A stretch of 60,056 nt of DNA, taken from the NCBI RefSeq assembly GCF_937859865.1, contig NZ_CALMAT010000003.1:14477-74532 (forward strand), in the 5' to 3' direction. Positions 939 through 53,386 of this stretch are shown here, in pieces. Both the position numbers and the translations under genes were made by a program. Source of the stretch: an uncultured Mucilaginibacter sp. Its GTDB lineage: Bacteria > Bacteroidota > Bacteroidia > Sphingobacteriales > Sphingobacteriaceae. The notes beneath the pieces are model-generated. The model had not been told where the DNA came from. It did no database searches and saw nothing but the letters and a program-made list of their open reading frames with translations. Position 1 is the stretch's first letter. Every line of letters begins with the position of its first letter.

Positions 939-1470
939 AAGAGCGCTCCTTTCTGGCCAAATGTGCGGCACCAATCAGCGCCATCATCAGCAAAATGGAA
1001 ATGGCTTCAAAAGGCAGCAAAAAAGTAGTCATTAAATTGGTGCCGATGTTGGTAACGGTGTTATCTTGGGGACGAAAAGTATTATTAGTTGCCTGCAAAA
1101 TCCATCCCAATTGATCGGGTTTGAGTTTGAAAATAGCATTCACCAATACAATCAAAAACGCTGCTGCCACCAGCAATGCCGGAAACTGTTTCAAAGTAAA
1201 AACCGGATGCCGACTCTCCTCCAACTTTTCCAGCGTTTCTTTGCTTGACAGCATAAACGTGAACAGCATCAGCACCAAAACGCCACCCACATAAATCACA
1301 ATTTGGGTTACGGCCACAAAATCCGCCAGGGCAAAAACGTACAGGCCGGCAACGGCAAAAAGCGTTACAAAAAACATAAAAACCGAGCGTACCAGGTTTT
1401 GGCTTGCTGCCACAAACCAGGCCGAAGCAACCGTTGTTAAACCCAAAAAAATAAATATGCCTTGCTCCAT
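931..1470 (-). CDS. nuoJ: NADH-quinone oxidoreductase subunit J
   Basis: Membrane subunit of complex I, about five hydrophobic helices, 179 residues. The conserved region VTQIVIYVGGVLVLMLF, which carries the pi-bulge helix of NuoJ/ND6, is visible at about residues 54-70. It lies between nuoI and nuoK in canonical order. The ATG at 1468-1470 is embedded in a copy of the dispersed 12-base word described in the findings: on the coding strand the start reads GGGGTAAAAGAAGCATG, so the repeat supplies both the purine-rich stretch upstream and the start codon. Confidence 0.95.
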   Translation of the reverse strand: MEQGIFIFLGLTTVASAWFVAASQNLVRSVFMFFVTLFAVAGLYVFALADFVAVTQIVIYVGGVLVLMLFTFMLSSKETLEKLEESRHPVFTLKQFPALLVAAAFLIVLVNAIFKLKPDQLGWILQATNNTFRPQDNTVTNIGTNLMTTFLLPFEAISILLMMALIGAAHLARKERSFD

Positions 1471-1480
1471 GCTTCTTTTA
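1469..1480 (+). repeat. Dispersed word ATGCTTCTTTTA, single copy over the nuoJ start
   Basis: Exact copy of the 12-base word. It fills most of the 13-base gap between nuoJ and nuoI and includes the nuoJ ATG on the opposite strand. Downstream flank is CC, short spacer, then a T tract, as in other copies. Confidence 0.85.
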
Positions 1481-2084: not shown

Positions 2085-2145
2085 GTAGAGACGTTGCATG
2101 CAACGTCTCTACGCCTGCAACGTCTCTACACCTACAACGTCCCTA
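2085..2145. repeat. 28-bp perfect palindrome with two decayed half-copies
   Basis: Positions 2085-2112 form a perfect 28-base palindrome with half-site GTAGAGACGTTGCA. It is followed by two half-site relatives ending CAACGTCTCTAC and CAACGTCCCTAC, up to about 2145. The array lies between nuoI and nuoH and runs into the last codons of nuoH, supplying its TAG stop at 2143-2145. It resembles a REP-type intergenic palindrome. I recall near-identical words from other bacterial genomes but could not check this. Confidence 0.8.
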
Positions 2146-3213
2146 CATTAACCACAACCGCCAAATTCCTGAAATCAACATACACAAAAATGCAAGCGGC
2201 GTTAAAACTTTCCAGCATAAATCCATCAACTGGTCAACCCGGAAACGCGGCAACGTCCAACGAACCCACATTTGCAAACCAATTAAAAGTAATGATTTCA
2301 GAAAAATCCAGCCAATTCCCCAGATATTTCCGGTTGTCCAATCGGCCAGTTTTACGGCTCCAATGTTTGGCAAAGGCGTATTCCAGGCACCGAGAAACAG
2401 GATGACGCCAACCATTGATACCAAAAACATCATTGAATATTCGGCCAGAAAAACCAGTGCAAAACGTATTCCGGTGTATTCGGTATGAAAACCGGCAACC
2501 AATTCCGATTCTGCTTCCGGGATATCAAACGGCGCACGGTTGCTTTCGGCCAAGGAAGCGATAAAGTAAATCACAAAAGCAACGATCAAATGCGGTGCGC
2601 GAAAAATGTTCCAAGCCAAAATTCCGCCTACTTCTTTTACCGGTATAAATCCTAAAAACTTTACGTTTTCTGCGGAAAGGATGCCTTGCTGTTTGGAAAT
2701 CTCCTGTAAATCCAAACTTTGCGAAATCATGATGACAGAAATAATGGCAAAACCAGCCGGGATTTCATAAGAAACAATTTGTGCCACTGAACGCATGGCC
2801 CCAAGCAAAGCATATTTGTTGTTCGATCCCCATCCAGCCATTAAAATACCAACGGTTTCGATGGAAAGTACGGCCAGAATATAAAAAATCCCAACATTGA
2901 TACTGGCCGGAATTAAACCCGGTGCCCAAGGCAAAGCGGCAAAACCTAAATAAACGGCAACAAAAATGATGATCGGAGCTAAAGCAAAAAGGATTTTATC
3001 AGCAGCCAACGGCGTGATCAGTTCTTTTTGCAGCATCTTTAGCATATCCGCAAAAACCTGTAACGAACCATATTTTCCGGTTTCCATCGGCCCCAACCGG
3101 TCTTGTATAAACGCGGAAACTTTGCGCTCAGCATAAACGCCAAACGTGGTAAACAGCGCCACAAAAGTAAACAGCGCCAGGGCAACCAAAATGTTGAGGA
3201 GGTAATGGTTCAA
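2143..3213 (-). CDS. nuoH: NADH-quinone oxidoreductase subunit H
   Basis: Membrane subunit of complex I that forms part of the quinone site and joins the peripheral to the membrane arm. About eight hydrophobic helices in 356 residues. The strongly conserved loop ESNRAPFDIPEAESELVAG is present at about residues 222-240, as is the early segment AERKVSAFIQDRLGP. It is the first gene of the visible nuo run on the minus strand; nuoA-G are not upstream (murI follows), so the peripheral-arm genes must lie elsewhere. The last codons overlap the palindromic repeat at 2085-2145. Confidence 0.96.
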   Translation of the reverse strand: MNHYLLNILVALALFTFVALFTTFGVYAERKVSAFIQDRLGPMETGKYGSLQVFADMLKMLQKELITPLAADKILFALAPIIIFVAVYLGFAALPWAPGLIPASINVGIFYILAVLSIETVGILMAGWGSNNKYALLGAMRSVAQIVSYEIPAGFAIISVIMISQSLDLQEISKQQGILSAENVKFLGFIPVKEVGGILAWNIFRAPHLIVAFVIYFIASLAESNRAPFDIPEAESELVAGFHTEYTGIRFALVFLAEYSMMFLVSMVGVILFLGAWNTPLPNIGAVKLADWTTGNIWGIGWIFLKSLLLIGLQMWVRWTLPRFRVDQLMDLCWKVLTPLAFLCMLISGIWRLWLM

Positions 3214-7975: not shown

Positions 7976-8716
7976 TTAGTTCACTTGCTCGCTTGTCTTG
8001 CCAAAACGACGTTCGCGGGTTTGGTAATCTAAAACGGCTTCAAACAAATCTTCTTTGCGGTAGTCGGGCCATAACTTGGCTGTGAAATAAAGTTCGGCAT
8101 AAGCAATTTGCCATAACAAATAGTTGCTGATCCGGTATTCGCCGCTCGTCCTGATCAGCAGTTCCGGGTCAGGCATTTCCGATGTATGGAGTTCTTTTGC
8201 AAACAGTTCTTCACTGATGTCTGCTGCTTTCAGTTCGCCTTTTTCCACCTTTTCGGCCAGTTTGCGGGCAGCGCCCACAATTTCCCTTCTCGAACTATAA
8301 CTTAGGGCCAATGTTAAAACCAAACCAGTATTGGCAGAAGTTTTATCAATTGCATTTTGCAGTTCCTGGTGGCACTTTCCGGGCAGCATGTCCAGATCGC
8401 CGATGGCATTTAAACGCACATTGTTTTCCATCAGTTTCTTGATTTCTTTGTTGATGGTGGAGATTAGCAGTTCCATAATGGCGGTAACCTCGTATTTCGG
8501 CCGGTTCCAGTTTTCCGAAGAAAAAGTATATAAAGTTAAATAAGCAATGCCCAGTTCGCCCGCGCCTTCTACCACATCGCGCACCGCCAAAACACCGTTG
8601 TGGTGGCCAAATACGCGCAATTTGCCTTTGCCTTTTGCCCATCGCCCGTTGCCGTCCATAATAATGGCCACGTGTTTGGGCAATTTTGCTTTATCTATTT
8701 GTGCTCTGAAATCCAT
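7976..8716 (-). CDS. uppS: Isoprenyl transferase (undecaprenyl diphosphate synthase)
   Basis: Condenses isopentenyl diphosphate units in cis to make undecaprenyl diphosphate, the lipid carrier for peptidoglycan and surface polysaccharide. The signature IIMDGNGRWAKGKG puts the catalytic aspartate at residue 21. The C-terminal motifs DPELLIRTSGEYRISNYLLWQ and the SNYLLWQIAYAEL region bind the substrate. 246 residues, usual length. It is upstream of bamA by about 60 bases and probably cotranscribed. Confidence 0.96.
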   Translation of the reverse strand: MDFRAQIDKAKLPKHVAIIMDGNGRWAKGKGKLRVFGHHNGVLAVRDVVEGAGELGIAYLTLYTFSSENWNRPKYEVTAIMELLISTINKEIKKLMENNVRLNAIGDLDMLPGKCHQELQNAIDKTSANTGLVLTLALSYSSRREIVGAARKLAEKVEKGELKAADISEELFAKELHTSEMPDPELLIRTSGEYRISNYLLWQIAYAELYFTAKLWPDYRKEDLFEAVLDYQTRERRFGKTSEQVN

Positions 8717-8872
8717 TGATCAGTTTCGTGCATTTAATATTGCAGGCCAATTTTTTATGTTCAGGTTGAAGTTTGCCAAACTGTTTTTTTTGATAAAAAA
8801 TTCAGGCTGCAAAGGTAAAATTAATCTTTAAATTATGGTGTCCGGGACGATTATCATTTTGAAACCGAAATT
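8717..8872. other. Non-coding stretch upstream of uppS
   Basis: About 155 bases with no reading frame I would call a gene. It should contain the promoter of the uppS-bamA run on the minus strand; I could not pick a convincing -7 element. With the repeat array that follows, the gene-free gap reaches about 350 bases. Confidence 0.5.
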
Positions 8873-9064
8873 GAATTTGTCCGATGCTTCTTTTACCATA
8901 TAAAATCATTGCGCTGCAACTAAACATTATTGCCTCAACAATTTGAATTTGACCGATGCTTCTTTTACCATATAAAAATTATTGCGCTGCAACTAAATAT
9001 TATTGCCTCAACTACTTTTTGCCCAACAATTTTAAATTTGGCCAATGCTTCTTTTACCATATAA
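8873..9064. repeat. Tandem array of 72-bp units, each carrying the dispersed word
   Basis: Units starting at 8873 and 8945 are near-identical over 72 bases (GAATTTG.CCGATGCTTC, then TTTTACCATATAAAA, then TTGCGCTGCAACTAAA). A third, more diverged unit holds the word at 9045-9056. The exact 12-base word occurs at 8884-8895, 8956-8967 and 9045-9056, always in the same orientation and with the same ACCATATAAAA flank. The array sits between uppS and the stop codon of the next minus-strand gene. Confidence 0.85.
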
Positions 9065-9067
9065 AAA

Positions 9068-9859
9068 TTATGGCGACACAACCGGACATTTTTGACTTAA
9101 AAAAGTGTACGAAAGCGTAAGCCCGGTAATCATATAAGTGTCCCGCCGAAAATTTCCGCGTTGCGAACCGGGCGAACCGATGTAAACGCCGGTTTTTTCT
9201 CCGGAGCGGTCTGTTAAAACCCTTGAATCAACATTAACCAAACCTGCTTTATCGGGATAATAACTGCTCACATCATCCAGATAGTTGGTAAAAGCCGTGC
9301 GGTAGCCCAGCTCGATACCCAAATTCCAGCTTCCCGAAAAATTAACTTTTACACCAACGCCGTAAGGAACACTTAAAGCATTGTACGGATATTCTTTTTG
9401 CTGGCCTTCTGTTTTTAATGGCCGAAGCACGTACGTATCGCCTTTGTAAACGGCTTTCGGGTTATAGTTTACCAAGGCCACACCGCCAAAAATATATGGT
9501 GTCCATCTTTTAAGGCTAATGCCCGAATAGTAATTAAAAAAGTTAAGCTCGCCGGTGAGCGATACTTCGTTTATCGGCGAAAAAAAGCTGAGGTTGCGGT
9601 TGCGCAGTTGTGGGTTGGACGACAAGCTGTCGGCACCGCGGATTTTACCATAAGTATAACCGAGTTTGGCAGAAAAATAACCGTTAAAGTTTCGTTTTAC
9701 AAAAACACCGGCCGAAAAATCGGTAAATTTAAAAGGGTTCACCTCGTTAAAATCACCCATGTAGCCAGATGAACCTGCAAAAATCCCCGGTTCCCAGGTT
9801 TGGGCAAAACAGGCCGAAGAAAGCAGCAGTAAAAGAAGCAAACCATAAAGTTTACGCAT
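9068..9859 (-). CDS. DUF6089-like outer-membrane beta-barrel protein
   Basis: 263 residues from the ATG at 9857-9859, starting MRKLYGLLLLLLLSSACFAQ, a clear signal peptide; a GTG 13 codons upstream would overlap nadK and is less likely. The rest alternates short beta strands with aromatic residues (for example FKTDFSAG-type and LGYTYGKIRG-type segments) as in small outer-membrane barrels. It resembles the DUF6089 family that accompanies nadK in this phylum. No catalytic motif seen; role unknown. A copy of the dispersed word (TAAAAGAAGCA, 9830-9840) falls in the signal-peptide codons as a leucine run. Confidence 0.75.
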   Translation of the reverse strand: MRKLYGLLLLLLLSSACFAQTWEPGIFAGSSGYMGDFNEVNPFKFTDFSAGVFVKRNFNGYFSAKLGYTYGKIRGADSLSSNPQLRNRNLSFFSPINEVSLTGELNFFNYYSGISLKRWTPYIFGGVALVNYNPKAVYKGDTYVLRPLKTEGQQKEYPYNALSVPYGVGVKVNFSGSWNLGIELGYRTAFTNYLDDVSSYYPDKAGLVNVDSRVLTDRSGEKTGVYIGSPGSQRGNFRRDTYMITGLTLSYTFLSQKCPVVSP

Positions 9860-12317: not shown

Positions 12318-12764
12318 TTATTGCAACAGCTGCTTCACAATTTCAGAAATTGTTTTGCCATCGGCCTTTCCGGCCAGTTCTTTGTTGGCAGTGCCCATGA
12401 TCTTGCCCATATCTTTTACCGAAGTTGCGCCTGTTTTTTTGATCACCTCCTGCAAATAGGCCGCAATTTCTTCCCGCCCCATTTGCTGCGGCAAATACAC
12501 TTCGATCACCTGCATTTCTTCTTTTTCGATCCGGTACAAATCGTCGCGGTTTTGCGACTGGTAAATTTCTGCGGATTCTTTGCGCTGCTTAATCAGCTTT
12601 TGCAACACTTTCAGTTCGGTTTCTTCGGAGATATTTTCGGATGCGCCTTTTTCTGTTCTGGCCAGCAACAAAGCCGATTTAATGGCCCGCAAGCCGCGCA
12701 GCCTGGCCTCCTCTTTTGCCAGCATAGCTTTTTTTATATCCTGGTCTATGGTTTCTATTAACAT
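12318..12764 (-). CDS. GatB/YqeY-domain protein
   Basis: 148 residues matching the YqeY family, related to the tRNA-binding tail of GatB: LRGLRAIKSALLLARTEKG near the N terminus and KDMGKIMGTANKELAGKADGKTISEIVKQLL at the end (conserved MG..M......G..D). Role in bacteria is poorly defined; a link to tRNA amidotransferase is only by homology. The ATG is embedded in a copy of the dispersed word, so the coding strand reads GATAAAAGAAGCATG at the start, as for nuoJ. Confidence 0.9.
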   Translation of the reverse strand: MLIETIDQDIKKAMLAKEEARLRGLRAIKSALLLARTEKGASENISEETELKVLQKLIKQRKESAEIYQSQNRDDLYRIEKEEMQVIEVYLPQQMGREEIAAYLQEVIKKTGATSVKDMGKIMGTANKELAGKADGKTISEIVKQLLQ

Positions 12765-12774
12765 GCTTCTTTTA
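12763..12774 (+). repeat. Dispersed word over the yqeY start codon
   Basis: Exact ATGCTTCTTTTA followed by TCGGTA and a T7 tract. Its first two bases overlap the complement of the yqeY start codon. Confidence 0.8.
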
Positions 12775-13699: not shown

Positions 13700-14446
13700 T
13701 TATTCAAAGATCAAACTAAACACAATAGTATGCAGGTATAGTTTTTCGAGCGGGCTGGCGTAAGGATGGTTTTCGGGATATAAAACGCTGCCAAATGAGT
13801 TGGACAGTTTGATTTCGGGCGAAAGTTTGAAATATTCCAGGTAAATATCGCAACCAAAACCGGCGACATAAGAAGAAAAGTTGGGCACGTTTTTAAGCTT
13901 TCTTTCCAGTGGGGCCAAATCTGCTTCATTAGTTTTACTTTGATTGCCAATGCCGTAAGCATATTTTACGCCGCCTAAAACGTAAGCCCGAAAGTTGCCC
14001 AAACGGTTGGATTTCAGTTTGAGTTCGAGCGGAAACTCAGCTTGCGTTGTCGAAACCACCTGGTTTTTGTCGGGCGCCAAATCCTGTGTCCGGTATTGAT
14101 AGCTCATTGTTCGATCAGCAAAAACCAAAGTTGGCGTTAGGCGTACTTCAAAATTATCCGTTATGCTATACCGTGCCAAAAAACCCAGGGCAAAACCGGC
14201 TGTGCCAGGCGAAGTAATGCTGTTTAAAGAGTCGGTTACGTTGCGGTTCGTTCCCTGGTCGTAATACGGCGTGCGCCAATCCGGCTTTTTTAAAATTTTG
14301 TAGGAAGAGTTGACGTACTGAAAAGTGTAGCCGAAAGAAAAAGCGTTTTGGTCTGCACCGCCTGCCCAGGCCTGCACCACGCGCTGTGCAAAAATAGGGG
14401 AAGCCAAAAAAAACATGCCTAAAAACAGTATGTACTTAATCTTCAT
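13700..14446 (-). CDS. porT: Type IX secretion system outer-membrane protein PorT
   Basis: 248 residues, signal peptide (cleavage near PIFAQ, residue 21), then a small beta-barrel of the PorT family with aromatic-rich strands. PorT is an outer-membrane component required for T9SS export. Position directly after ubiE with a 4-base ATGA overlap is a conserved arrangement in this phylum and supports the call. The second form of the dispersed word is in the signal-peptide codons at 14420-14431. A T9SS-tagged substrate is encoded at 25098. Confidence 0.82.
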   Translation of the reverse strand: MKIKYILFLGMFFLASPIFAQRVVQAWAGGADQNAFSFGYTFQYVNSSYKILKKPDWRTPYYDQGTNRNVTDSLNSITSPGTAGFALGFLARYSITDNFEVRLTPTLVFADRTMSYQYRTQDLAPDKNQVVSTTQAEFPLELKLKSNRLGNFRAYVLGGVKYAYGIGNQSKTNEADLAPLERKLKNVPNFSSYVAGFGCDIYLEYFKLSPEIKLSNSFGSVLYPENHPYASPLEKLYLHTIVFSLIFE

Positions 14447-15171
14447 TTAACGCCGGTGTAAACAGAACAAATCCCAAACGCCAGTGGCCGTTGTTTGGTA
14501 TTTTTGAAACCTACTTTCTGCATCAGGCCGGTAAAACGTTCGCCATCCGGAAACGCGGCAACAGATTCGGGCAGGTAACTGTAAGCGCGGGCATCTTTAG
14601 AAAAAACTTTGCCGATAAAAGGCGTGATATAATTGAAGTAAAAATTGTACAAATGTTTAACCGGGAAGATTCTCGGTTTGGAAAACTCTAAAATAACCGC
14701 TTTTCCGTTTGGTTTTAACACGCGGAACATATCGGCCAGCCCGGCTTCCAAATTCTCAAAATTACGAACGCCGTAAGCAACGGTAACGGCATCGAAAGTA
14801 TCTGTATCAAACAACAACTTTTCCGAATCGCCCAAACGCACTTCGAACTTATCAGCCATGCTTCTTTTACCGATCTTTTTTTGGGCGATGTTGAGCATGC
14901 CTTGCGAAATATCCACACCAATTATTTTTTTTGGGTTGAGGATTTTGATGGCTTCAAAAGCAAAATCTCCGGTTCCGGTTGCTACATCCAAAATCAGTTG
15001 CGGTTGGTCTTTTTTCAGTTCGTTGATCGCAATTTTCCGCCAGATAATATCAATCCCAACAGATAAAAAATGGTTCAGGAAATCGTAAGTCTTGGAAATA
15101 TTGTTGAACATATCCGCCACTTGTTCTTTCTTGGTGGCCTGGTTTTGGTAAGGCGTAATCGTTTTGTTCAT
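14443..15171 (-). CDS. ubiE: Demethylmenaquinone methyltransferase (UbiE/MenG)
   Basis: Methylates demethylmenaquinone to menaquinone with S-adenosylmethionine. Visible: FLNHFLSVGIDIIWR, SAM motif DVATGTGDFAFE, VAYGVRNF and the post-motif LKPNGKAVILEFSKP. 242 residues. Overlaps the porT start by 4 bases. The dispersed word sits in the middle of the gene at 14858-14869, read as GKRSM, without any visible insertion relative to the family. Confidence 0.95.
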   Translation of the reverse strand: MNKTITPYQNQATKKEQVADMFNNISKTYDFLNHFLSVGIDIIWRKIAINELKKDQPQLILDVATGTGDFAFEAIKILNPKKIIGVDISQGMLNIAQKKIGKRSMADKFEVRLGDSEKLLFDTDTFDAVTVAYGVRNFENLEAGLADMFRVLKPNGKAVILEFSKPRIFPVKHLYNFYFNYITPFIGKVFSKDARAYSYLPESVAAFPDGERFTGLMQKVGFKNTKQRPLAFGICSVYTGVK

Positions 15172-20067: not shown

Positions 20068-20108
20068 TAAAAACAGTATGTCAGTTTTCTTAACCAATAC
20101 TGTTTTTA
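20068..20108. repeat. Inverted pair of the second dispersed word after the M3 gene
   Basis: TAAAAACAGTAT at 20068-20079 and ATACTGTTTTTA at 20097-20108, separated by 17 bases; outer flanks CCCGG and TCGG extend the arms. Can fold into a hairpin downstream of the M3 stop codon; possible terminator. A/T tracts lie outside the pair on both sides. Confidence 0.75.
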
Positions 20109-22841: not shown

Positions 22842-22961
22842 GCAATGCTTCTTTTACCACACAAATTTTAGTGTGGTAAAAGAAGTATTCGTATTTTTTT
22901 TAATGTATTGGCCGATGCTTCTTTTAGCGCACAAATTTTAGTGTGATAAAAGAAGCATCGG
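22842..22961. repeat. Two stacked inverted pairs of the dispersed word between convergent genes
   Basis: First hairpin: ATGCTTCTTTTACCACAC at 22845-22862 and its near-perfect complement GTGTGGTAAAAGAAGTAT at 22871-22888 around AAATTTTA. Second hairpin: ATGCTTCTTTTA at 22915-22926 and TAAAAGAAGCAT at 22947-22958 with the same AAATTTTA centre and CCG/CGG outer bases. The two are about 70 bases apart and look like a duplication. Placement between the permease and kup stops suggests a bidirectional terminator. Confidence 0.88.
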
Positions 22962-32229: not shown

Positions 32230-32258
32230 TACTGTTTTTATGCCGATAAAAACAGTAT
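32229..32258. terminator. Hairpin of the second dispersed word joining two convergent stop codons
   Basis: Perfect inverted repeat ATACTGTTTTTAT (32229-32241), four bases, ATAAAAACAGTAT (32246-32258). The last base of the aminotransferase TGA is the first base of the hairpin, and the DUF58 stop begins at its last base. A bidirectional terminator role is likely although the stem is A/T-rich. Confidence 0.75.
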
Positions 32259-39055: not shown

Positions 39056-42000
39056 TTGGAAAAATACGGACGCATATTTCTTAAGGTTGTACTCTGGCTG
39101 ATAGTAAGTGTGATTGCGCTTATATTATTGGTGGTGGTTTTGATACAAGTTCCTGCCGTTCAAAACTTTGCAAAAGATAAAGCCGTTAGCTTTTTGGAAG
39201 GGAAAATCCACACACCGGTACGCATCGGCCACATTTCTTTGGGTTTGCCCAAGTTGCTGGTTTTAGAAGATGTTTATTTTGAAGACCAGAAAAAAGACAC
39301 GCTGCTGGCCGGCGAAAAGCTAAAGGTTGACATCAGTTTGTTAAAAATTTTGAACAACCAGATCGAGATAAACGAAGTTAATTTACAAGGCATCACGTCG
39401 CACATCAACCGAACGATGCCGGACAGTGCTTTTAACTTTACTTATATCATCAAAGCTTTTGCAAGCGACCAGAAGAAGCCAAAATCAACCGATACGGCTT
39501 CGATGAAGTTTTCGATCAGCAAAATCAACCTCGACCGTATCCATATTAAATACAACGATGCCGTTTCGGGCAATGATGTTGCTTTTAATTTAGGCCATTT
39601 TGATACCAACATCAAAGATTTTGATTTGGATAAGATGAAATTTACCGTTCCGAAAATTACGCTTTCGGATGTAAATGCACGCGTCATCCAACACCAAATT
39701 GCGGCGGCGGCCACTGCGGCTGCAACGGATACGGCTGCTTCCAAACCATTAAATTACGATTTGAAGTTGGGCGAAATTGATTTAAACCGGATTAAGGTTG
39801 ATTATCAAAACGAATCCAACGCTTTAAAAACCAAAGTTGATTTGGGCAAACTTTTGGTTGATTTGGACAGCATTGATATGAAAAACCAGCGCGTGGTGAT
39901 CCGAAATATCGAATTGAACCAAACCAAAGCCGCCATGGCAACCGGCCGGCCTGCAACAGCGGCCACCATAAAAACCACGGTAAAAGAAGCATCGAAAAAA
40001 GCAGTTGACAAAGACACGACCACAAAAACCGCTGCCGAAGAAAAAGGCTGGACGGTTAAATTAGGGAAAGTAGCTTTTGCCAATAACGATATCCAGTTTG
40101 ACAACAACGCCTCAAAACCGATTGCCCGCGGTATTGATTACATGCACCTGAATTTAAAAGGCTTGAACGTTGATGCAGATGATATTTTGTACAGTCCGAC
40201 TACGATTTCCGGCAAGATCAACCAATTTGCTTTTAGCGAGAAAAGCGGCGTGCAGGTTAGAAATTTTCACACCACATTTTTATACGGACAAAAACAGTCT
40301 TTCCTGAAAAACCTGTATCTGGAAACTCCCGGAACGGTTATCCGTGATTTTATTGATGTGAAATATCCTTCTATTTCCAGCCTCAGCAACAATTTGGGCG
40401 AGCTGCAGTTGAGCGCTAATTTTGCAAACAGCAAACTGGCTTTTAAAGATGTACTGGCTTTTGTGCCAACTTTGGCCACTACGCCGCCATTTAAAGGAAA
40501 TGCAAATGCGAGTTTAAACGTAAACGGAAAGGTCAGCGGCAAGGTAAACGATTTGACGATTCAAAACCTAAGCGTTTCGGGATTAGGGCAAACTAAAATT
40601 GCAGCTTCGGCACATTTAAAAGGTTTGCCGGATGTGGACAAAGCTTTTTTTGACCTCGACATCAAAGATTTTACTACAACTGGCCGCGATATTGCCAAGC
40701 TGGCACCGGCAGGTTCTATCCCAACCAGCGTACGACTTCCTGAGTCTTTAGGCCTAAAAGGCACCTTTAAAGGAAGCATCAAAAACTTTACGACCAACAT
40801 GGCTTTGCGTTCCAGTTATGGCAATATCCATGCAATTGCCGGGATGAAAAGCGGCAGCAAAAAAGGCAGCGAAGTTTATAACGCCGATGTGAAAATGGAC
40901 AATTTTAATGTTGGGCGGTTGATCAAACAGGAAAAGACTGTTGGACGCTTAACCTTGAATGCCAAAGTAAAAGGTTCTGGCACGAGTGTAAAAAATGCCA
41001 ATGCAACTTTATCAGCAAATTTAATCCGTGCTGATGTGAAAGGTTATGTTTACCGGAATTTGATTTTAACAGGCAATGCACACAATGGCTTAATCAATAC
41101 TGTAGCCAGGATGAAAGACCCGAACATCAACTTTGCGCTGAATGCCAAAGTGAACATGGCCAACAAATATCCTGCGGTAAATGCCACTTTGAATTTAGAC
41201 AGCATCAATTTGCAGCGACTGCATTTCTCAAGCACACCGCTTCGTTTACATGGTAAAATTGTGGCTGATGTCCCTACCGCTGACCCGGATTATCTGAATG
41301 GAAATATCCAATTGACCAACTTGCTGATCGTACAGGGAACGCAGCGCATTCAATTAGATTCGGTTGGTATTATTTCGACTGCCAATGCCGATAGTTCTTC
41401 GTTAAGGATCAAATCTCAGATACTAACTGCCCGAATGAGCGGCAAGTATAAGCTGACCGAAGTTGGAACGGCTTTGCAGGCAACTATCAACAAATACTAT
41501 AATACTGGTGCTTCTTTTACCAAGGTAAAATTTGCGCCAGAAAACTTTACATTCCAAGCTGTTATCACCAAAACACCTTTGTTAACGCAGTTTGTACCTG
41601 ATCTGAAACAATTAGACCCAGTTAAATTAACAGGGCGTTTTAACAGTGATGCCGGGGATTTGGTAATAAATGGTGCAGTGCCAAATACGGTTTATGGCAC
41701 TAACCAGATCAGCAATTTAAAGCTGGCGATCAACACAGGCAATAATGCTTTGAACTATAGTTTTGGTGTAGATAAAATTGCAACTTCGTCTATCCAATTG
41801 TTAAATACCAGCATCAGCGGCAACGCACAAAACAACCTGCTTTCTGTAAATGTCAGCATAAAAGATAAGGGCTTAAAAGAGCAATACCGCATTGCAGGCG
41901 TGTTGAAAGCTTTGACAAACCAGTACGAATTTAGCCTGTTGCAAAACGGATTGGTGTTGGATTATGACCCTTGGACGGTGAACGCCGGTAATGCACTACA

Positions 42001-44137
42001 ATTTGGCGGAAAAGGTATTTTGGCCCGAAACTTTAACATCACCAGCAATAACCAAACTTTAAGCGTAAATACAACAAACCAGAAACTAAACGGCCCGCTT
42101 GCCATTACTTTCCAAAACTTTAAAATAGAAACCTTAACCCAAATTGCAGAAAAAGATTCATTGAAAGTTGGCGGAAGAATAAACGGAAATGCACTGGTGA
42201 GCAATTTTGCAGCAAGCCCGGTTTTCACTTCTGATCTGAACATCCGCGATTTCAATTTTAAAGCAGATACCCTGGGCGACATTGCCATCAAAGTAAACAA
42301 CCAGCAAGCCAATACTTATGCTGCAAATGTGTCCATTACCGGGAAAGGCAATGAAGTAAGGCTCGCCGGTTTGTACCATACCAACCAGCCGGACAACAAC
42401 ATTGACTTGAACCTCGATATTGTAAAGCTAAACATGAAGAGTATTGAAGGCTATACATTAGGGTATTTGCGCAATACAACGGGGGCTATCAATGGCCAGG
42501 TTAAAATTGCTGGTTCGTCTTCCGCCCCAAATGTCAACGGCGATATCAACTTTAATAAAGTTGGTTTTAATGTAGCCATGCTCAACTCGTATTTTAGCTT
42601 GGATAATGAAAAGATCAATTTCAACCGGGACGGTATAACTTTTAATGATTTTACCCTGGTTGATTCTACCGGAAATAAAGCAACTATCAACGGCTCTGTT
42701 TACACCAAAACTTTTACCGATTTTAAATTTGGCCTCGATATCAACACGGATAATTTCAGGCTGATCAATTCTACTCGCGAAGACAATCAATTGTATTACG
42801 GCAGACTTTTCTTAAACAGCCGCATCAAAATACGCGGCGATATGAGCAAACCGGTAGTTGATGCCAATTTAACGGTGAACGACCAGACGAACCTGACTGT
42901 TGTATTGCCGCAAAGCGACCCGGGAGTGGAAGACCGGAAAGGCGTGGTAGAGTTTGTAAACAAAAATGCACCAAAATTAGATTCAATTTTGCTGGCCAAA
43001 CAACGCGACTCTGTCAGCAAGTCCGATATTACTGGAATGGATGTTTCTGCCAATGTTACGATTAATAAAAATGCCAACTTCAACATCGTTATTGATGAAA
43101 GCAACGGTGATATTGTGCACATAAAAGGGGCAGCACAACTGAATGCAGGTATTGACCCAAGTGGTAAAATTAATTTAACCGGTACTTATATTGTTAATAC
43201 AGGTTCGTACAACTTATCGTATGCAACAGTACAACGAAACTTCACTTTTAAACAAGGCAGCACCATTACCTGGACGGGCGACCCGACCAGTGCCAACATT
43301 GATTTAACTGCGGTAAACGTGGCCAATGTACCACCGATTGATTTGGTGGAGGACCAGTTGAGTTCTGAAACCGAAAAAACAATGTACAAACAAAAATTGC
43401 CATTCAATGTAAACCTGAATTTGAAAGACGAGTTGATGAAACCAACCATCAGCTTTGATATTGTACTGCCCGACAGCAGCTACAGCGTGTCTTCTGATGT
43501 TATCAATACGGTGGATGCGCGTTTGGCACAAATCAGACAAGACCCGAACGAGTTGAACAAGCAGGTTTTGGGCGTGCTTGTTTTAGGACACTTTATTGGT
43601 GATAACCCATTGCAAAGTTCGGGCGGAAGCAGTGGTGTGGAAGGTATTGTGCGGAACAGTGTCAGCGGTTTGTTGTCAGATCAGTTGAACAAGCTGGTTG
43701 GAAACTCAATAGCCGGTGTTGATTTAAACTTTGGCCTGACTTCCGGAGAAGATTACTCAACCGGAACTGCACAGAACCGTACCGATTTAAACGTTGCTTT
43801 ATCCAAACGCTTTTTGAATGACCGCCTGTCTGTTTCTGTTGGCAATAATTTTAATTTGGAAGGGCAAAACCAGCCCGGACAAAAAGCCAGTACCATCGCT
43901 GGTAACGTAAATGTAGGCTACAAACTAACCAAAGACGGCCGCTTCTCTTTAAGAGCTTACCGCCGAGACGAATACATTGTAATACAAGGCCAAGTGGTAG
44001 AAACAGGCGTTGGTTTTTCCTTTACCGTTGATTACAACCAGTTTAAAAACATCTTTAAAACTTCAGAACAGCTTAAAGAAATGCGCCGCCAGCAAAAACA
44101 GGACAAGAAGGACAAGAAAGCACAAACTTCAAAATAA
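39056..44137 (+). CDS. tamB: Translocation and assembly module protein TamB
   Basis: 1693 residues, inner-membrane-anchored (hydrophobic helix at about 8-32), spanning the periplasm as a long beta-taco made of many short strands; the C-terminal DUF490/TamB domain (about 1300-1640) contains NLTGTYIVNTGSYNLSY and VGNSIAGVDLNFGL. It partners with a TamA-type barrel; the next gene, 4 bases away, encodes one. The start is TTG at 39056, with no better start nearby. Dispersed words lie at 39981-39992 (VKEAS) and 41509-41519 (GASFTK). Confidence 0.9.
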   Translation: MEKYGRIFLKVVLWLIVSVIALILLVVVLIQVPAVQNFAKDKAVSFLEGKIHTPVRIGHISLGLPKLLVLEDVYFEDQKKDTLLAGEKLKVDISLLKILNNQIEINEVNLQGITSHINRTMPDSAFNFTYIIKAFASDQKKPKSTDTASMKFSISKINLDRIHIKYNDAVSGNDVAFNLGHFDTNIKDFDLDKMKFTVPKITLSDVNARVIQHQIAAAATAAATDTAASKPLNYDLKLGEIDLNRIKVDYQNESNALKTKVDLGKLLVDLDSIDMKNQRVVIRNIELNQTKAAMATGRPATAATIKTTVKEASKKAVDKDTTTKTAAEEKGWTVKLGKVAFANNDIQFDNNASKPIARGIDYMHLNLKGLNVDADDILYSPTTISGKINQFAFSEKSGVQVRNFHTTFLYGQKQSFLKNLYLETPGTVIRDFIDVKYPSISSLSNNLGELQLSANFANSKLAFKDVLAFVPTLATTPPFKGNANASLNVNGKVSGKVNDLTIQNLSVSGLGQTKIAASAHLKGLPDVDKAFFDLDIKDFTTTGRDIAKLAPAGSIPTSVRLPESLGLKGTFKGSIKNFTTNMALRSSYGNIHAIAGMKSGSKKGSEVYNADVKMDNFNVGRLIKQEKTVGRLTLNAKVKGSGTSVKNANATLSANLIRADVKGYVYRNLILTGNAHNGLINTVARMKDPNINFALNAKVNMANKYPAVNATLNLDSINLQRLHFSSTPLRLHGKIVADVPTADPDYLNGNIQLTNLLIVQGTQRIQLDSVGIISTANADSSSLRIKSQILTARMSGKYKLTEVGTALQATINKYYNTGASFTKVKFAPENFTFQAVITKTPLLTQFVPDLKQLDPVKLTGRFNSDAGDLVINGAVPNTVYGTNQISNLKLAINTGNNALNYSFGVDKIATSSIQLLNTSISGNAQNNLLSVNVSIKDKGLKEQYRIAGVLKALTNQYEFSLLQNGLVLDYDPWTVNAGNALQFGGKGILARNFNITSNNQTLSVNTTNQKLNGPLAITFQNFKIETLTQIAEKDSLKVGGRINGNALVSNFAASPVFTSDLNIRDFNFKADTLGDIAIKVNNQQANTYAANVSITGKGNEVRLAGLYHTNQPDNNIDLNLDIVKLNMKSIEGYTLGYLRNTTGAINGQVKIAGSSSAPNVNGDINFNKVGFNVAMLNSYFSLDNEKINFNRDGITFNDFTLVDSTGNKATINGSVYTKTFTDFKFGLDINTDNFRLINSTREDNQLYYGRLFLNSRIKIRGDMSKPVVDANLTVNDQTNLTVVLPQSDPGVEDRKGVVEFVNKNAPKLDSILLAKQRDSVSKSDITGMDVSANVTINKNANFNIVIDESNGDIVHIKGAAQLNAGIDPSGKINLTGTYIVNTGSYNLSYATVQRNFTFKQGSTITWTGDPTSANIDLTAVNVANVPPIDLVEDQLSSETEKTMYKQKLPFNVNLNLKDELMKPTISFDIVLPDSSYSVSSDVINTVDARLAQIRQDPNELNKQVLGVLVLGHFIGDNPLQSSGGSSGVEGIVRNSVSGLLSDQLNKLVGNSIAGVDLNFGLTSGEDYSTGTAQNRTDLNVALSKRFLNDRLSVSVGNNFNLEGQNQPGQKASTIAGNVNVGYKLTKDGRFSLRAYRRDEYIVIQGQVVETGVGFSFTVDYNQFKNIFKTSEQLKEMRRQQKQDKKDKKAQTSK

Positions 44138-44141
44138 ACCT

Positions 44142-46409
44142 ATGACCAGAGCTCTAATATATTTATTGTTAATTTCTATTTTTCTAAGTGCCTGCAGCAA
44201 TACCAAATACTTAACCGGTGCGCAAAAGCTGTATGTGGGCGGCAAAGTAAATATCACTAACAAAGACTTAAAGAAAAATGACAAAAAAGCTTTGGCCGGA
44301 GAATTAACAGGTTTGCTTCGCCCAAAACCTAATTCAACAATTTTCGGTTTAAGGCCGAAATTATACATCTACAACATTACCAGAACAACTAAGAAAAAAG
44401 GGCTGAAACATTATTTAAACACAAAATTTGGCGAGCCGCCTATTTTGGCAAGTGCAGTTGACCTTACCAAAAACACCAATATTATTGTTAACCGTTTACA
44501 GAACGAAGGTTATTTCCAGGCTCAGGCCACAGGCGATACTATCAGTAAAGCAAAAAAAACCACTGCGGTTTATACCGTAAACACTGGCCCGGCCTATACC
44601 ATCAAAACCCTTAGTTTTCCAACAGAAAAAGACAATTTGGATACCGCCATTGCAGGAATAGCAAAGCAGTCTTTGTTAAAAGTTGGCGATAAGTATAACC
44701 TGGATGTGATCAAAGCCGAACGGGAAAGAATTGATGCCAATTTGAAAGAAAAAGGCTTCTATTATTTTGCCCCGGAGGACCTGAAAGCAAGAGTTGACAG
44801 CACTGATGTAGGCAACCATCAGGTTGATATGTCGATCATTGTTATAAATACAACACCTGGCAAAGCGCGCAATATTTATAAAATCAACAACATTTACGTT
44901 TATCCAAACTATTCTTTACGAGACACATCTTTAATGCTCGACCAAGCGGTTAAGTACAACAATTATTATGTGATACAAAAAAAGCAAACCATTAAACCTT
45001 TTGTATTCAAAAATACCGTACAATTGCTGCCGGGTGGAGTTTACAACCGTGCGGACCATAACAAATCTTTAAGCCGTTTTATCAATTTAGGCCCTTTTAA
45101 ATATGTAAAAAACAGGTTTGAAGATGTCTCCACTGATTCGCCGAGGTTAAATGTTTATTATTTCCTGACCCAGTTTCCGCGTAAATCTTTATCAGTTGAT
45201 GTTTTGGCCCGAACTACATCCGCCAATTATAACGGCACGCAACTCAACTTAAACTTCCGCAACAGAAATACTTTCAGAGGGGCAGAACTGTTAACATTGA
45301 CCCTTTTTGGAAGTACCGATGCACAAGTTTCCGGGCAATATGGCGGCGGCCATCCCCTGTCCCAGGTTGGTTTTCAAGCCTCTTTGTCCTGGCCGCGTTT
45401 CATCAGCCCTTTCAATTTCAAAAACGACAATGCCTATATTCCCCGCACCAACTTTTCCGTGGGCTACTCCATTGTAAACCGCAGCGGCTTGTACAATTTA
45501 AATTCCTTTAACGGTTCTTTTGGCTACCAATGGCGAGAAAGTACACATCGCTCGCACGAGTTAAATTTAATTACAGTTACTTATGTAAAACCAGCCAAAG
45601 TAGATACCGCTTATACCAACAATATTGCAGTTACCGGCAACCCGGCTTTAAGACACGTTATTGACCCGCAGTTTACTTTCGGCCCGTCTTACAGTTATAC
45701 GTACACCAACACCACCGAAACTTATCGTACCAATACCGTTTATTATAACAGCCGCATCAGCTTTTCCGGAAATATTATTGGCTTGGCAAGCGGAGCGGAT
45801 ACGCTGGGCGGAAAAATAAAAAGGATATTTAATACGCCTTACAATCAATACATTAAGCTGGAAAACGAGATCAGGTTTTTTCATAAAGTAAGCACAAACA
45901 GCCAGATTGCAGCACGCTTAATAGCAAGTGCCGGTTTGCCTTATGGCAACTCCACCATTTTGCCTTACAGCCAGCAATTTTTTATTGGCGGTCCAAATAG
46001 TTTGCGCGGGTTTAGGGCGAGGTCTATTGGTCCGGGAAATGTTGACCCAGGGCAGTATATTCAAAATGTAGGCAACAACAATACATTTTTAGCCGATCAA
46101 TCAGGCGATATAAAGCTGGAAGGGAACTTAGAATACCGGCCAAAACTATTCAGCATTGTTTATGGTGCCTTGTTTGCCGATGCCGGTAATGTTTGGAATA
46201 CAAAACCGCATTATCCGGGCGGAAGTTTTGGCAAAAATTTTCTAAATCAATTGGCTGCCGATGTTGGCTTCGGTTTACGGTTTGATGCCAGCGTTTTGGT
46301 GTTGCGTACCGATTTAGGTTTCCCAGTAATGAGACCTTATACTTCAATAAACAGTAGTTTAAATACCAACAAACCAGTTTTCAACCTGGCTATCGGTTAT
46401 CCGTTTTAA
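44142..46409 (+). CDS. tamL: TamL: lipoprotein variant of TamA/BamA-family outer-membrane protein
   Basis: 755 residues from ATG 44142 (MTRALIYLLLISIFLSAC): lipoprotein signal with cysteine at 18. POTRA-like domains (about 60-330) precede a 16-strand BamA-type barrel with loop-6 motif SLRGFRARS. The lipidated TamA variant is described as TamL in Bacteroidota, found with tamB, as here. Longer upstream reading overlaps tamB out of frame and is rejected. Probable role: transport or insertion of outer-membrane components together with TamB. Confidence 0.88.
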   Translation: MTRALIYLLLISIFLSACSNTKYLTGAQKLYVGGKVNITNKDLKKNDKKALAGELTGLLRPKPNSTIFGLRPKLYIYNITRTTKKKGLKHYLNTKFGEPPILASAVDLTKNTNIIVNRLQNEGYFQAQATGDTISKAKKTTAVYTVNTGPAYTIKTLSFPTEKDNLDTAIAGIAKQSLLKVGDKYNLDVIKAERERIDANLKEKGFYYFAPEDLKARVDSTDVGNHQVDMSIIVINTTPGKARNIYKINNIYVYPNYSLRDTSLMLDQAVKYNNYYVIQKKQTIKPFVFKNTVQLLPGGVYNRADHNKSLSRFINLGPFKYVKNRFEDVSTDSPRLNVYYFLTQFPRKSLSVDVLARTTSANYNGTQLNLNFRNRNTFRGAELLTLTLFGSTDAQVSGQYGGGHPLSQVGFQASLSWPRFISPFNFKNDNAYIPRTNFSVGYSIVNRSGLYNLNSFNGSFGYQWRESTHRSHELNLITVTYVKPAKVDTAYTNNIAVTGNPALRHVIDPQFTFGPSYSYTYTNTTETYRTNTVYYNSRISFSGNIIGLASGADTLGGKIKRIFNTPYNQYIKLENEIRFFHKVSTNSQIAARLIASAGLPYGNSTILPYSQQFFIGGPNSLRGFRARSIGPGNVDPGQYIQNVGNNNTFLADQSGDIKLEGNLEYRPKLFSIVYGALFADAGNVWNTKPHYPGGSFGKNFLNQLAADVGFGLRFDASVLVLRTDLGFPVMRPYTSINSSLNTNKPVFNLAIGYPF

Positions 46410-46424
46410 TCTAAACTGAATTTT

Positions 46425-46478
46425 ACCCGATAAAAAAAGCATGGCCAATTAAATTAAGCCATGCTTCTTTTATCGGTA
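46425..46478. repeat. Inverted pair of the dispersed word between tamL and a hydrolase
   Basis: ATAAAAAAAGCATGGC at 46430-46445 (one G-to-A change from the word) and GCCATGCTTCTTTTATCGG from 46458. The stem spans about 18 pairs with a 12-base A/T loop. Genes on both sides converge on it, so it may act as a bidirectional terminator. Confidence 0.82.
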
Positions 46479-46493
46479 CTTTTTTGGTGAATA

Positions 46494-47324
46494 TTAGGCA
46501 ATAAAATCTACCAAGTCAGCCGTAAGTTTTTCTTTTTCGGTGATAAACAAACCATGCGGTGCGCCTTTATAAATTATAAATTTTGCATCCGGTAATAATT
46601 TTGAAGCTTGCTCTCCGGAAGTTTTAATCGGAACAGTTTGATCATCATCACCATGAATAATCAGCGTTGGCACTTTAACAGTGCTCACCTCCGCACGAAA
46701 ATCTGTTGAAGAAAAAGCTTTCATACAATCAATCGTTGCTTTTCCGCTTCCCGTTAAAGCCAGCATTTGTGTCCAGTCCAGCATTTCCGAACTTACCACG
46801 GGTTTCAATAAACTGTCGTTGTAAAACTGTTTTCCAAACGCTGCCAAAAACTTCGGACGGTCATCGCGCAACTGTGTTTCAAACTCGTCAAACATTTTTT
46901 GCGGAACGCCTTCCGGGTTGTCATCCGTTTTCAGCAAATACGGAATGATCGAACTTACCAAAACAATTTTTGCAATCCGTTCGCTTCCATACAAACTTAA
47001 ATAACGGATTACTTCTCCCCCGCCCATTGAAAAACCAACTAAAGTTACTTCGTTTAGGTCAAGCTCGTCCAGCAAAGCTTTTAAATCACTGGCCAACGTG
47101 CTGTAATCGTAATTTCCCCAGGGTTTGTCAGATTTTCCAAAACCACGGCGGTCATAAGCAATCACCCGAAAGCCATGTGCAGGCAACTCGTTCAATTGAT
47201 ATTCCCAGGAATCGCTTGTTAATGGCCAGCCATGGATCAGCACAACTGGTTTTCCCTGGCCTAAATCCTGATAAAAAATTTTAACAGGAGTTTCATTATT
47301 GTTTTTTGATTCTAGAAACGGCAT
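46494..47324 (-). CDS. Alpha/beta hydrolase (haloperoxidase/esterase-like)
   Basis: 276 residues. Motifs: LIHGWPLTSDSWEYQLNEL, YDRRGFGKSDKPW, nucleophile elbow GFSMGGGEVIRY (serine), acid in HGDDDQTVP and histidine in YKGAPHGLFITEKE. This is the pattern of cofactor-free chloroperoxidase/arylesterase relatives. No signal peptide. Substrate unknown. Confidence 0.87.
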   Translation of the reverse strand: MPFLESKNNNETPVKIFYQDLGQGKPVVLIHGWPLTSDSWEYQLNELPAHGFRVIAYDRRGFGKSDKPWGNYDYSTLASDLKALLDELDLNEVTLVGFSMGGGEVIRYLSLYGSERIAKIVLVSSIIPYLLKTDDNPEGVPQKMFDEFETQLRDDRPKFLAAFGKQFYNDSLLKPVVSSEMLDWTQMLALTGSGKATIDCMKAFSSTDFRAEVSTVKVPTLIIHGDDDQTVPIKTSGEQASKLLPDAKFIIYKGAPHGLFITEKEKLTADLVDFIA

Positions 47325-47404
47325 TTTAATTTGATTTAATTGTTTGTTATAACTTGAATTTTAAAACTGTTGTTTTTAACAAGCATGAAATAATTTTATG
47401 CCGG

Positions 47405-47416
47405 TAAAAGAAGCAT
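47405..47416 (-). repeat. Dispersed word between divergent hydrolase and retropepsin-like genes
   Basis: Exact TAAAAGAAGCAT inside CCGGTAAAAGAAGCATTGCC; on its own strand followed by CCGGCATAAAATTATTTC. Confidence 0.8.
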
Positions 47417-47482
47417 TGCCAATATTGGTTTAACCCTCAAATTAAAATTCTAAGTATTAGTTTTGGCAGATACTAATTTTAC

Positions 47483-47914
47483 ATGCCTAAAAAAAGCATC
47501 CCCCTGGAATTGATTGATCTGAACGGAAACGGTTTTCACGCACTAGTAAATGTAACCGTGTTTAACAAAACTTTTAAATTGGTTTTAGATACTGGCGCAT
47601 CAAAAACAGCTTTTGATAAAACACTGCTCCTGGAACAAATACATGAAAAAGAGCTGATTAATTCCGGCCATTTAACCACTGGTTTAGGCACCAACAACAT
47701 GGAATCTTTTATGACTACGATTACTGATTTCTACATTGGCAAGTTTCACATTCCTGAAATTGAAGTTGCTGTTTTGGATCTTTCCGCCATTAATATCGCT
47801 TACGAAAAGTTAGCCGTCGGGCCGGTGTTAGGTGTTTTAGGAGGCGATGTATTGGTGGAATTTAGGGCTGTGATTGATTATGAGAAGGGGAAGTTGAGTT
47901 TGAAAAGTGAGTAG
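47483..47914 (+). CDS. Retropepsin-like aspartic protease family protein
   Basis: 143 residues, one copy of the pepsin/retropepsin half-fold: LVLDTGASKTAFDK holds the catalytic DTG, and a late GVLGGDVLVEFRAVIDYEK matches the conserved I.G.D.L....IDY end. No signal peptide, so cytoplasmic. Would need to dimerise to be active. Function unknown. Confidence 0.82.
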   Translation: MPKKSIPLELIDLNGNGFHALVNVTVFNKTFKLVLDTGASKTAFDKTLLLEQIHEKELINSGHLTTGLGTNNMESFMTTITDFYIGKFHIPEIEVAVLDLSAINIAYEKLAVGPVLGVLGGDVLVEFRAVIDYEKGKLSLKSE

Positions 47915-47925
47915 TTTTTAGGTGA

Positions 47926-47937
47926 TAAAAGAAGTAT
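47926..47937 (-). repeat. Dispersed word, GTA variant, after the retropepsin-like gene
   Basis: TAAAAGAAGTAT 12 bases after the stop; own-strand flank TCACCTAAAAACTACTC. Confidence 0.7.
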
Positions 47938-47994
47938 AATGGATTTAGAAGTTCTAAACGCTGAAAACGTTGTTTACAACTTCCAGTCAAATAA

Positions 47995-48765: not shown

Positions 48766-50742
<1,977 letters not shown>

Positions 50743-50757
50743 TCAAACATTAACCTT

Positions 50758-50765
50758 CAAAGATA
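50758..50765 (-). promoter_or_regulatory. -7 promoter element TATCTTTG for gyrB
   Basis: Minus strand, fits TAnnTTTG, about 25 bases before the gyrB ATG. Confidence 0.55.
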
Positions 50766-50858
50766 CGATTTTTAGCCTATATAAATGCTCTTTTTGCCAA
50801 CAAAAGCAGTACTTGGAAAGCTGGTTTTTAAAAGATTAGGATACTTGCAGCGAAAGAT

Positions 50859-53004: not shown

Positions 53005-53386
53005 CGCACGAAAGTTTTTTGGCCTTAGAGCCTGTTTAAATTTATATCATAAAATTTTACAATGCTTCTTTTATGCCTATAAATTTGGTGTGCCCGAATA
53101 TTTTAAGGGTACAAAAACCACAAAAAGACAATGAATTTTATGTGGTAAAAGAAGCATGGCAAATAAAATAAGGTTAACAAAATTTAAACAAGCTCTTAGT
53201 TTATTTCTAAAAACAACCTGTTCCAAACACAAGGCCATCGCCATTTCAGTTTAAACAGATTGTGCCTGCTTGCCGGTTTTAAAACCTCAATTTTTGTTAT
53301 GTTTGCCAAAGCGCAACTTATGCTGCTTGTGCCATTGGTAAAATTAAACTCAAAATTCTACAACAAAAATTAAGCTTGATACCGAG
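53005..53386. other. Gap upstream of dapD
   Basis: 382 bases without a gene. Contents: an inverted pair of the dispersed word (53062-53157), a -7 promoter element TATGTTTG at 53298-53305, and about 80 bases of leader before dapD. The phrase AAGAGCTTGTTTAAATTT-like occurs in inverse form at both edges of the pair (GAGCCTGTTTAAATTT at 53027 and AAATTTAAACAAGCTC near 53180), extending the palindrome outward. Confidence 0.7.
53027..53195. repeat. Long nested inverted repeat containing a pair of the dispersed word
   Basis: ATGCTTCTTTTA at 53062-53073 and TAAAAGAAGCAT at 53146-53157. Outer arms GAGCCTGTTTAAATTT (from 53027) and AAATTTAAACAAGCTC (near 53180-53195) also pair with one mismatch. The whole looks like a terminal-inverted-repeat unit of about 170 bases with no coding capacity. 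Confidence 0.75.

What the first reader, a model, noticed from the sequence alone, without database searches (positions are those of the whole stretch)
8873..9064. 72-base tandem units amplify the word beside uppS
Two near-identical 72-base units and a diverged third carry three same-direction copies of the exact word with identical ACCATATAAAA flanks. Unlike the inverted pairs this cannot form word-word hairpins, so amplification is by tandem duplication of a non-coding unit. It shows the word can also spread by slippage, and copy number may vary between strains.
Basis: seen in the sequence. Interest (0 to 1): 0.5.

Follow-up and report, generated by a model that had tools for sequence, protein, structure and literature searches.

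The report
Tandem copies of an uptake-like word
A stretch between two genes has been copied three times in a row, and each copy carries a short DNA word that one small group of bacteria repeats about once per thousand bases, in a pattern matching the self-recognition tags some bacteria use when taking up DNA; I found no report of such a tag in this phylum.

Summary
In detail: three same-direction copies of TGCTTCTTTTACCATATAAAA lie at 8885, 8957 and 9046, in two 72/73-base units (94% alike) and a diverged third (76%). Two sister species have one copy at this place, so the array is a lineage-specific tandem duplication of a site already there. Tandem duplication is a minor route for the word.

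The word is the real finding. TAAAAGAAGCAT (same word, other strand) occurs 2114, 1947 and 1118 times in the three held genomes of this genus (near Mucilaginibacter arboris) and 0-9 times in each of 57 other relatives. A 14-base form occurs 0-3 times in each of 198 other genomes of the family.

It sits in a bipartite motif: AT tract, gap, core. It lies between and inside genes, in both orientations, about one per kb. Its position is conserved between species at ~78% identity. It arises by substitution, even changing residues of NuoH, and often pairs as hairpins. These are the in-silico hallmarks of a DNA uptake sequence (USS/DUS).

ComEC, DprA and a ComEA-like gene are present; a type IV pilus ATPase and secretin were not found. 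I favour an uptake signal read by an unknown receptor (0.6). Uptake itself is untested.

The parts
8871..8943 (-). tandem unit 1 (word TAAAAGAAGCA at 8885-8895, - strand)
   Evidence: TRF 8871-9012, period 73, 94%
8944..9012 (-). tandem unit 2 (word at 8957-8967)
   Evidence: TRF; exact 21-mer
9016..9100 (-). diverged third unit (word at 9046-9056), 76% identical to unit 2; runs into the 3' end of the neighbouring gene
   Evidence: the repeat finder D1
7976..8716 (-). uppS, undecaprenyl diphosphate synthase, downstream of the array
   Evidence: Pfam PF01255, E 9e-84
9068..9859 (-). outer-membrane beta-barrel gene (DUF6089/OMP_b-brl), upstream of the array
   Evidence: PF19573 E 3e-29, PF13505
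2629..2639 (-). coding copy of the word (T variant) inside nuoH (2143-3213, -); word residues VKEV replace VTHx/VSHx/VGQA of 9 outgroup Mucilaginibacter, no gap
   Evidence: tblastn, Pfam NADHdh
14859..14869 (-). coding copy of the word inside a ubiE-type methyltransferase gene (14443-15171, -), no gap against 10 relatives
20068..20108 (.). inverted pair of the second dialect (TAAAAACAGTA / TACTGTTTTTA), pair conserved in both sister species; strong hairpin
   Evidence: z -6.6
22846..22957 (.). two inverted word pairs between convergent genes; one pair in each sister species
   Evidence: z -8.3 for the first
46431..46472 (.). inverted word pair between convergent genes, terminator-like hairpin; pair conserved in G002
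   Evidence: z -8.7
53027..53196 (.). MITE-like element (170 bp, inverted ends AGAGCCTGTTTAAA) carrying two inverted words at 53063 and 53146; absent from both sister species at this place

Best explanation
The word is the core of a DNA uptake sequence, working like the Haemophilus USS or Neisseria DUS. A cell-surface or periplasmic receptor prefers fragments that carry [AT tract, about 5 bases of spacer, G-R-TAAAAGAAGCAT]. Preferred uptake and recombination of kin DNA carrying the word makes sites that arise by mutation accumulate and persist (molecular drive), densest where they do least harm, between genes. The array at 8871-9100 is one such site tripled by ordinary tandem duplication in this lineage after it split from its sisters. 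Shown here: abundance, genus restriction, motif anatomy, both orientations, coding copies, origin by substitution, positional conservation, a second dialect, hairpin pairs, presence of comEC, dprA and a comEA-like gene, and the single ancestral site. Inferred: that a receptor reads it, that uptake is biased, and that drive made the sites.
For: Counts 2114/1947/1118 in the genus against 0-9 in 57 other relatives, reversed-word control 0-5 per genome over all 60; a 14-mer 1479/1357/711 against 0-3 in 198 other family genomes. About 1.05 sites per kb including main variants, +:- 249:224, no contig heterogeneity (p 0.66). Extended motif: W at -12..-8 in 88% of exact-word sites (background for five W 10%), G at -2 79%, T at +11 90%. 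The same motif in 88 coding solo sites, with A-tracts in place of T-tracts. 86 of 279 AAAAGAAGCA sites coding, 188 intergenic, 5 at a gene edge; orientation against genes 58:56 in same-direction intergenic gaps. 23 of 34 aligned sites identical in G001 against 9.6% of control 12-mers, 10 of 19 in G002 against 8.8%. Of 17 lost single sites, 13 have equal-length orthologues and none shows a clean excision of the word. nuoH VKEV against VTHx/VSHx/VGQA in 9 outgroups, no gap. Exact words outnumber all single mismatches in G000 (266:171) and G001 (183:162). Second dialect TAAAAACAG[CT]A with the same AT tract. Inverted pairs fold far better than shuffles. ComEC, DprA, HHH_3 protein of 314 aa. Published USS/DUS share these traits: about one per kb, strong consensus, AT-rich flanks, coding copies, not insertions (PMC1626085, passages); dialects and inverted pairs at terminators (PMC3630211, passages).
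Against: No uptake or competition assay. No PF00437 ATPase above cut-off and no secretin, so the pilus machinery that reads DUS/USS elsewhere was not found; ComEC also occurs in 26 of the 28 other genomes searched that lack the word, so it is no special mark. In the small G002 sample exact words do not outnumber single mismatches (30:35). Sites are mostly intergenic (67%). One class of inverted pairs spreads by a MITE-like element, so not all copies come from point mutation. Depletion from foreign DNA was not tested.
Confidence: 0.6

Rival explanations
1. The word is the binding site of an abundant intracellular DNA-binding protein (nucleoid-associated or segregation protein) that this genus uses chromosome-wide; the array is a chance duplication of one site.
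For: About 1 site per kb, both orientations, intergenic preference, ~30-bp bipartite motif with AT tract, strong positional conservation.
Against: Needs about 2000 sites to arise on the stem of one genus without a drive; exact words outnumber single mismatches in G000 and G001, unlike the relaxed consensus of regulatory sites (argument in PMC1626085, passages); residues of a conserved protein (NuoH) were changed to make a site.
Confidence: 0.17
2. The word is a mobile palindrome (MITE or REP-like) spread by a transposase; single words are half elements and the tandem array is one more product.
For: '-+' pairs have sharp spacings (17, 31, about 74-83); interiors of the ~92-bp class are homologous beyond shuffles (best score 27 against 12); 4 of 4 TIR-paired elements in the G000 sample and 1 of 1 in G001 carry words.
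Against: Single and coding sites change by substitution at equal length, not by insertion; coding copies rebuild the motif with different AT letters; Y1 (REP-type) transposase genes number 1, 2 and 1 in the genus, no more than in relatives; 15 of 44 ~80-spaced pairs lack TIR-like ends on either side.
Confidence: 0.1
3. The word is a transcription or translation signal (promoter, terminator half or leader) and the array modulates uppS expression.
For: Word pairs form terminator-like hairpins; convergent gaps are densest, 45 sites in 9.4 kb; several words touch start or stop codons.
Against: Orientation relative to genes is even, 58:56; 86 of 279 sites lie inside genes; single words form no structure; the terminator scan of 41000-60056 found fewer hits than shuffles (13 against 21.5); the array's two sister species do with one copy.
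Confidence: 0.08
4. The tandem units are an assembly artefact or pure chance, with no further meaning.
For: Draft genome of 177 contigs.
Against: Units differ from one another (94% and 76%), so they are not a mis-joined duplicate; the array lies inside a 60-kb window of one contig with syntenic flanks in two relatives.
Confidence: 0.03

Closest known systems
Uptake signal sequences (USS) of Pasteurellaceae (Hin-type AAGTGCGGT, Apl-type ACAAGCGGT)
   Same: Near 1 copy per kb, both orientations, strong consensus core plus AT-rich tracts, coding copies, not insertions, clade-specific (PMC1626085, abstract and passages; tests here).
   Different: Unrelated core; main AT tract lies on the other side of the core as written; phylum Bacteroidota; no PF00437 ATPase or secretin found; mostly intergenic here; uptake not shown.
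DNA uptake sequences (DUS) of Neisseriaceae and their dialects
   Same: Several dialects, inverted pairs as terminator-like hairpins, clade-specific distribution (PMC3630211, passages).
   Different: Neisseria DUS has no flanking motifs (PMC1626085, passage); its receptor ComP belongs to the type IV pilus system (PMC3868556, search listing; pilin identity recalled), which was not found here.
Self-preferring natural transformation of Riemerella columbina (Bacteroidota)
   Same: A member of the phylum prefers its own DNA in competition (PMC7965970, section 16); Riemerella needs ComEC, DprA, ComF and lineage-specific proteins of unknown function (PMC8459023, abstract).
   Different: Its table of frequent k-mers lists only A/T-rich words such as AAAAATAAAA, nothing like this motif.
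MITE / REP-type palindromic elements
   Same: One class of inverted pairs rides on a ~155-170 bp element with inverted ends.
   Different: Single and coding words are not insertions.

Membership tests
DNA uptake sequence (USS/DUS) | short word in hundreds to thousands of copies, near 1 per kb | tested here: met
   2114/1947/1118 exact 12-mers; 1.05 per kb with variants in 410 kb
DNA uptake sequence (USS/DUS) | no orientation bias along the chromosome | tested here: met
   249:224, heterogeneity p 0.66 over 8 contigs
DNA uptake sequence (USS/DUS) | copies in coding sequence that arose by mutation, not insertion | tested here: met
   86 of 279 sites coding
DNA uptake sequence (USS/DUS) | more exact copies than singly mismatched copies | tested here: inconclusive
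   met in G000 266:171 and G001 183:162, not in the 82-kb G002 sample 30:35
DNA uptake sequence (USS/DUS) | inverted pairs as terminator-like hairpins | tested here: met
   4 of 4 folded pairs beat all shuffles; 46 '+-' and 66 '-+' neighbours within 250 nt against 19 and 28 same-direction
DNA uptake sequence (USS/DUS) | core competence genes | tested here: met
   ComEC, DprA, HHH_3
DNA uptake sequence (USS/DUS) | type IV pilus or related pseudopilus for outer-membrane uptake, as in Neisseria and Haemophilus (recalled) | tested here: not met
   no PF00437 above cut-off in G000-G002; no secretin. Not required for filing as 'uptake word' in Bacteroidota, where Riemerella uses a unique machinery (PMC8459023, abstract)
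DNA uptake sequence (USS/DUS) | preferential uptake of DNA carrying the word | not testable with these tools
   needs an assay
MITE | copies are insertions with terminal inverted repeats and empty orthologous sites | tested here: not met
   for single words; met only for the ~155-170 bp carrier elements (window 53063 absent in both sisters)
REP elements with RAYT transposase | extragenic palindromes with a REP-associated Y1 transposase | tested here: not met
   coding copies; a single word is not a palindrome; Y1_Tnp 1/2/1 per genome, no excess
Chi / KOPS-type oriented motifs | strong strand bias along replichores | tested here: not met

The most novel reading that the evidence does not exclude
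A genus of Bacteroidota without recognisable type IV pilus parts has evolved its own DNA uptake signal, with an AT-tract plus TAAAAGAAGCAT core and at least one further dialect, about one site per kb. Self-specific DNA uptake has then arisen a further time outside Pasteurellaceae and Neisseriaceae, with a new receptor, and a MITE has picked up the word, possibly profiting from its uptake.
Probability: 0.5. Interest if true: 0.85.

Novelty: new variant of a known kind. Interest (0 to 1): 0.6.

Why it matters
Uptake words are described from Pasteurellaceae and Neisseriaceae, and how they arise and what reads them is debated. A third, independent case in another phylum, in a lineage without a recognisable type IV pilus ATPase or secretin, would show that the trait does not need that receptor. 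It would give a young, dense system with close outgroups that lack the word, in which gain of each site can be traced. One of the three species, Mucilaginibacter arboris HMF7410, is a named strain, so the test is practical. The tandem array itself is a small detail: a local triplication of one site.

Tried and rejected
Tandem amplification as the main route: rejected, 5 of 64 same-direction pairs show flank similarity. REP/RAYT: rejected, Y1_Tnp not expanded; the gene in G000 (L196) lies among signalling genes. Oriented chromosomal motifs: rejected, no strand bias. RNA structure of the array: none. Phage origin: the 17-mer GGTAAAAGAAGCATYGG gave 20 viral contigs with one match each, none dense; phage origin is not supported, though records near this genome may be left out. 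Other Bacteroidota words: 80 uppS loci were screened for frequent 9-mers; the 7 best leads outside the genus were read in full and were mostly local repeats or coding tracts, none a dispersed motif like this. Literature: searches found no uptake sequence reported for Bacteroidota; led to the Riemerella papers; one search lists three papers naming M. arboris (listing only).

Limits: gene calls are from my own script, on 450 kb (about 11%) of the genome; start sites are rough. Orthologue tests use 379 kb of G001 and 82 kb of G002. One single-site comparison (L052 8824 against G001_C34) is probably a paralogue; I left it in the count of 17. The exact-word conservation count includes the array's own sites, which align poorly. 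The first attempt to hand in this report lacked fields and was not accepted.

Full report
What is there. The window is bases 14477-74532 of contig 3 of a 3.98-Mb draft genome. Two sister species are held in the same genus. Between uppS and a beta-barrel gene lie three same-direction words in tandem units: two 94% alike with word spacing 72, and a third 76% alike with spacing 89. In both sisters the same gap holds one word and no repeat. The array is therefore a tandem duplication, in this lineage, of a site that was already present.

The word. Read on the other strand it is TAAAAGAAGCAT. It occurs 2114, 1947 and 1118 times in the three genomes of the genus, and 0-9 times in each of 57 other relatives (34 of the same family, 23 of other families of the class); the reversed word occurs at most five times per genome. 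A 14-base form occurs 1479, 1357 and 711 times, against 0-3 times in each of 198 other genomes of the family. In the uppS region of ten other Mucilaginibacter records (L081-L090) the 9-mer AAAAGAAGC occurs 0 or 1 times per 20.7 kb, against 9 and 8 in the genus.

Anatomy. Aligning 277 exact AAAAGAAGCA sites from 450 kb gives a motif of about 30 bp: an AT tract at -14 to -8, a spacer, S-Y-G-R, the core TAAAAGAAGCAT, and a weak AT tract at +15 to +20 (positions as numbered there). In 88 solitary coding sites the same positions are A/T in 94% of cases and G stands at -2 in 75%, but the tract is mostly A instead of T (positions counted from the T of TAAAAG). The motif is thus rebuilt with whatever letters the reading frame allows. 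That is expected if a protein reads DNA shape and core, and not if a fixed sequence was inserted. Variants TAAAAGAAGTA, TAAAAACAGCA and TAAAAACAGTA share the AT tract (67-93% with five W in G000 and G001, against 10% background) and act as further dialects.

Distribution. With variants there are 473 sites in 410 kb, 249 on one strand and 224 on the other, with no heterogeneity between contigs (p 0.66). Of 279 AAAAGAAGCA sites, 188 are intergenic, 86 coding and 5 at an edge, in sequence that is 85% coding by my gene calls. In gaps between same-direction genes the word points either way equally (58:56).

Evolution. Of 34 exact G000 sites within G001 alignments, 23 are identical, against 9.6% of control 12-mers; against G002, 10 of 19 and 8.8%. 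The reciprocal counts are 18 of 18 for G001 sites and 8 of 12 for G002 sites in G000. Of 77 single-site comparisons anchored by both flanks, 60 keep a site and 17 lack one. In 13 of those 17 the orthologous stretch has equal length and differs by substitutions; none shows the word cleanly missing. In nuoH the word encodes VKEV in this species and VKEV or VKEA in the sisters, where nine outgroup Mucilaginibacter have VTHx, VSHx or VGQA without any gap. One further coding site (515) did fall near alignment gaps in poorly conserved protein, so it is not informative. Exact words outnumber all single mismatches in G000 and G001, but not in the small G002 sample.

Pairs and a carrier element. Neighbouring words are often inverted. 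Four pairs folded as RNA beat all 200 shuffles. Both arms of a pair tend to be of the same dialect, and at window 56018 both arms differ together between G000 and G001. One class of '-+' pairs has spacing 63-95: 44 in the G000 sample, only 6 in G001. The interiors are homologous beyond chance. Some lie in a ~155-170 bp MITE-like element with ends AGAGCCTGTTTAAA (5 complete ones, all with words). So a mobile element carries two words and has added copies, more in this species. This is evidence against a pure point-mutation account. It does not explain the coding and single sites.

Mechanism. The features match those published for USS and DUS: near one per kb, both orientations, AT-rich flanks, unusually strong consensus, coding copies arising by mutation (PMC1626085, abstract and passages), dialects and inverted pairs at terminators (PMC3630211, passages). 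ComEC, DprA and a 314-aa protein with two HHH_3 domains are present. The PF00437 ATPase and the secretin were not found. Riemerella, also Bacteroidota, is transformable with ComEC, DprA, ComF and lineage-specific proteins (PMC8459023, abstract), and R. columbina prefers its own DNA (PMC7965970, section 16). So self-specific uptake has a precedent in the phylum and the lack of a pilus is not fatal. That a receptor reads this word is inference.

Verdict on the finding. The tandem array is genuine and lineage-specific, but incidental: it is one of 2 word-bearing arrays among 4 arrays in 450 kb. Its worth is as a pointer to a genus-specific, uptake-like word that I could not find in print for this phylum (searches; open-access library only).

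Noticed in passing
window 53027-53196; L043 8091-8245 and 16385-16542; L050 18558-18722; L062 14607-14762: MITE-like element of 155-170 bp with inverted ends AGAGCCTGTTTAAA, each with two inverted words inside; flanks often read as a TTA or TAA duplication. About 44 word pairs of this spacing in 450 kb of G000, 6 in 379 kb of G001: a recent expansion in this species.
   Followed up: partly
window 56018-56055; 20068-20108; 32230-32257: Inverted pairs tend to have both arms of the same dialect, and arms change together between species (56018: GAAG-type in G000, ACAG-type in G001), as if the hairpin were selected.
   Followed up: partly
L047 4848-5069: A second tandem array with the word: period 111, 2 copies, 94% alike.
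   Followed up: no
window 1470-1480 and 12764-12774: Word copies overlap the ATG of the following gene (TAAAAGAAGC-ATG); at 28041 the word supplies the TAA stop codon of the preceding gene.
   Followed up: no
window 2099-2147: Unrelated 17-base tandem repeat (2.9 copies) just beyond the 3' end of nuoH.
   Followed up: no
L114: GGTGACGGG occurs 12 times in 20.7 kb of a Bacteroidales MAG locus; not examined further.
   Followed up: no
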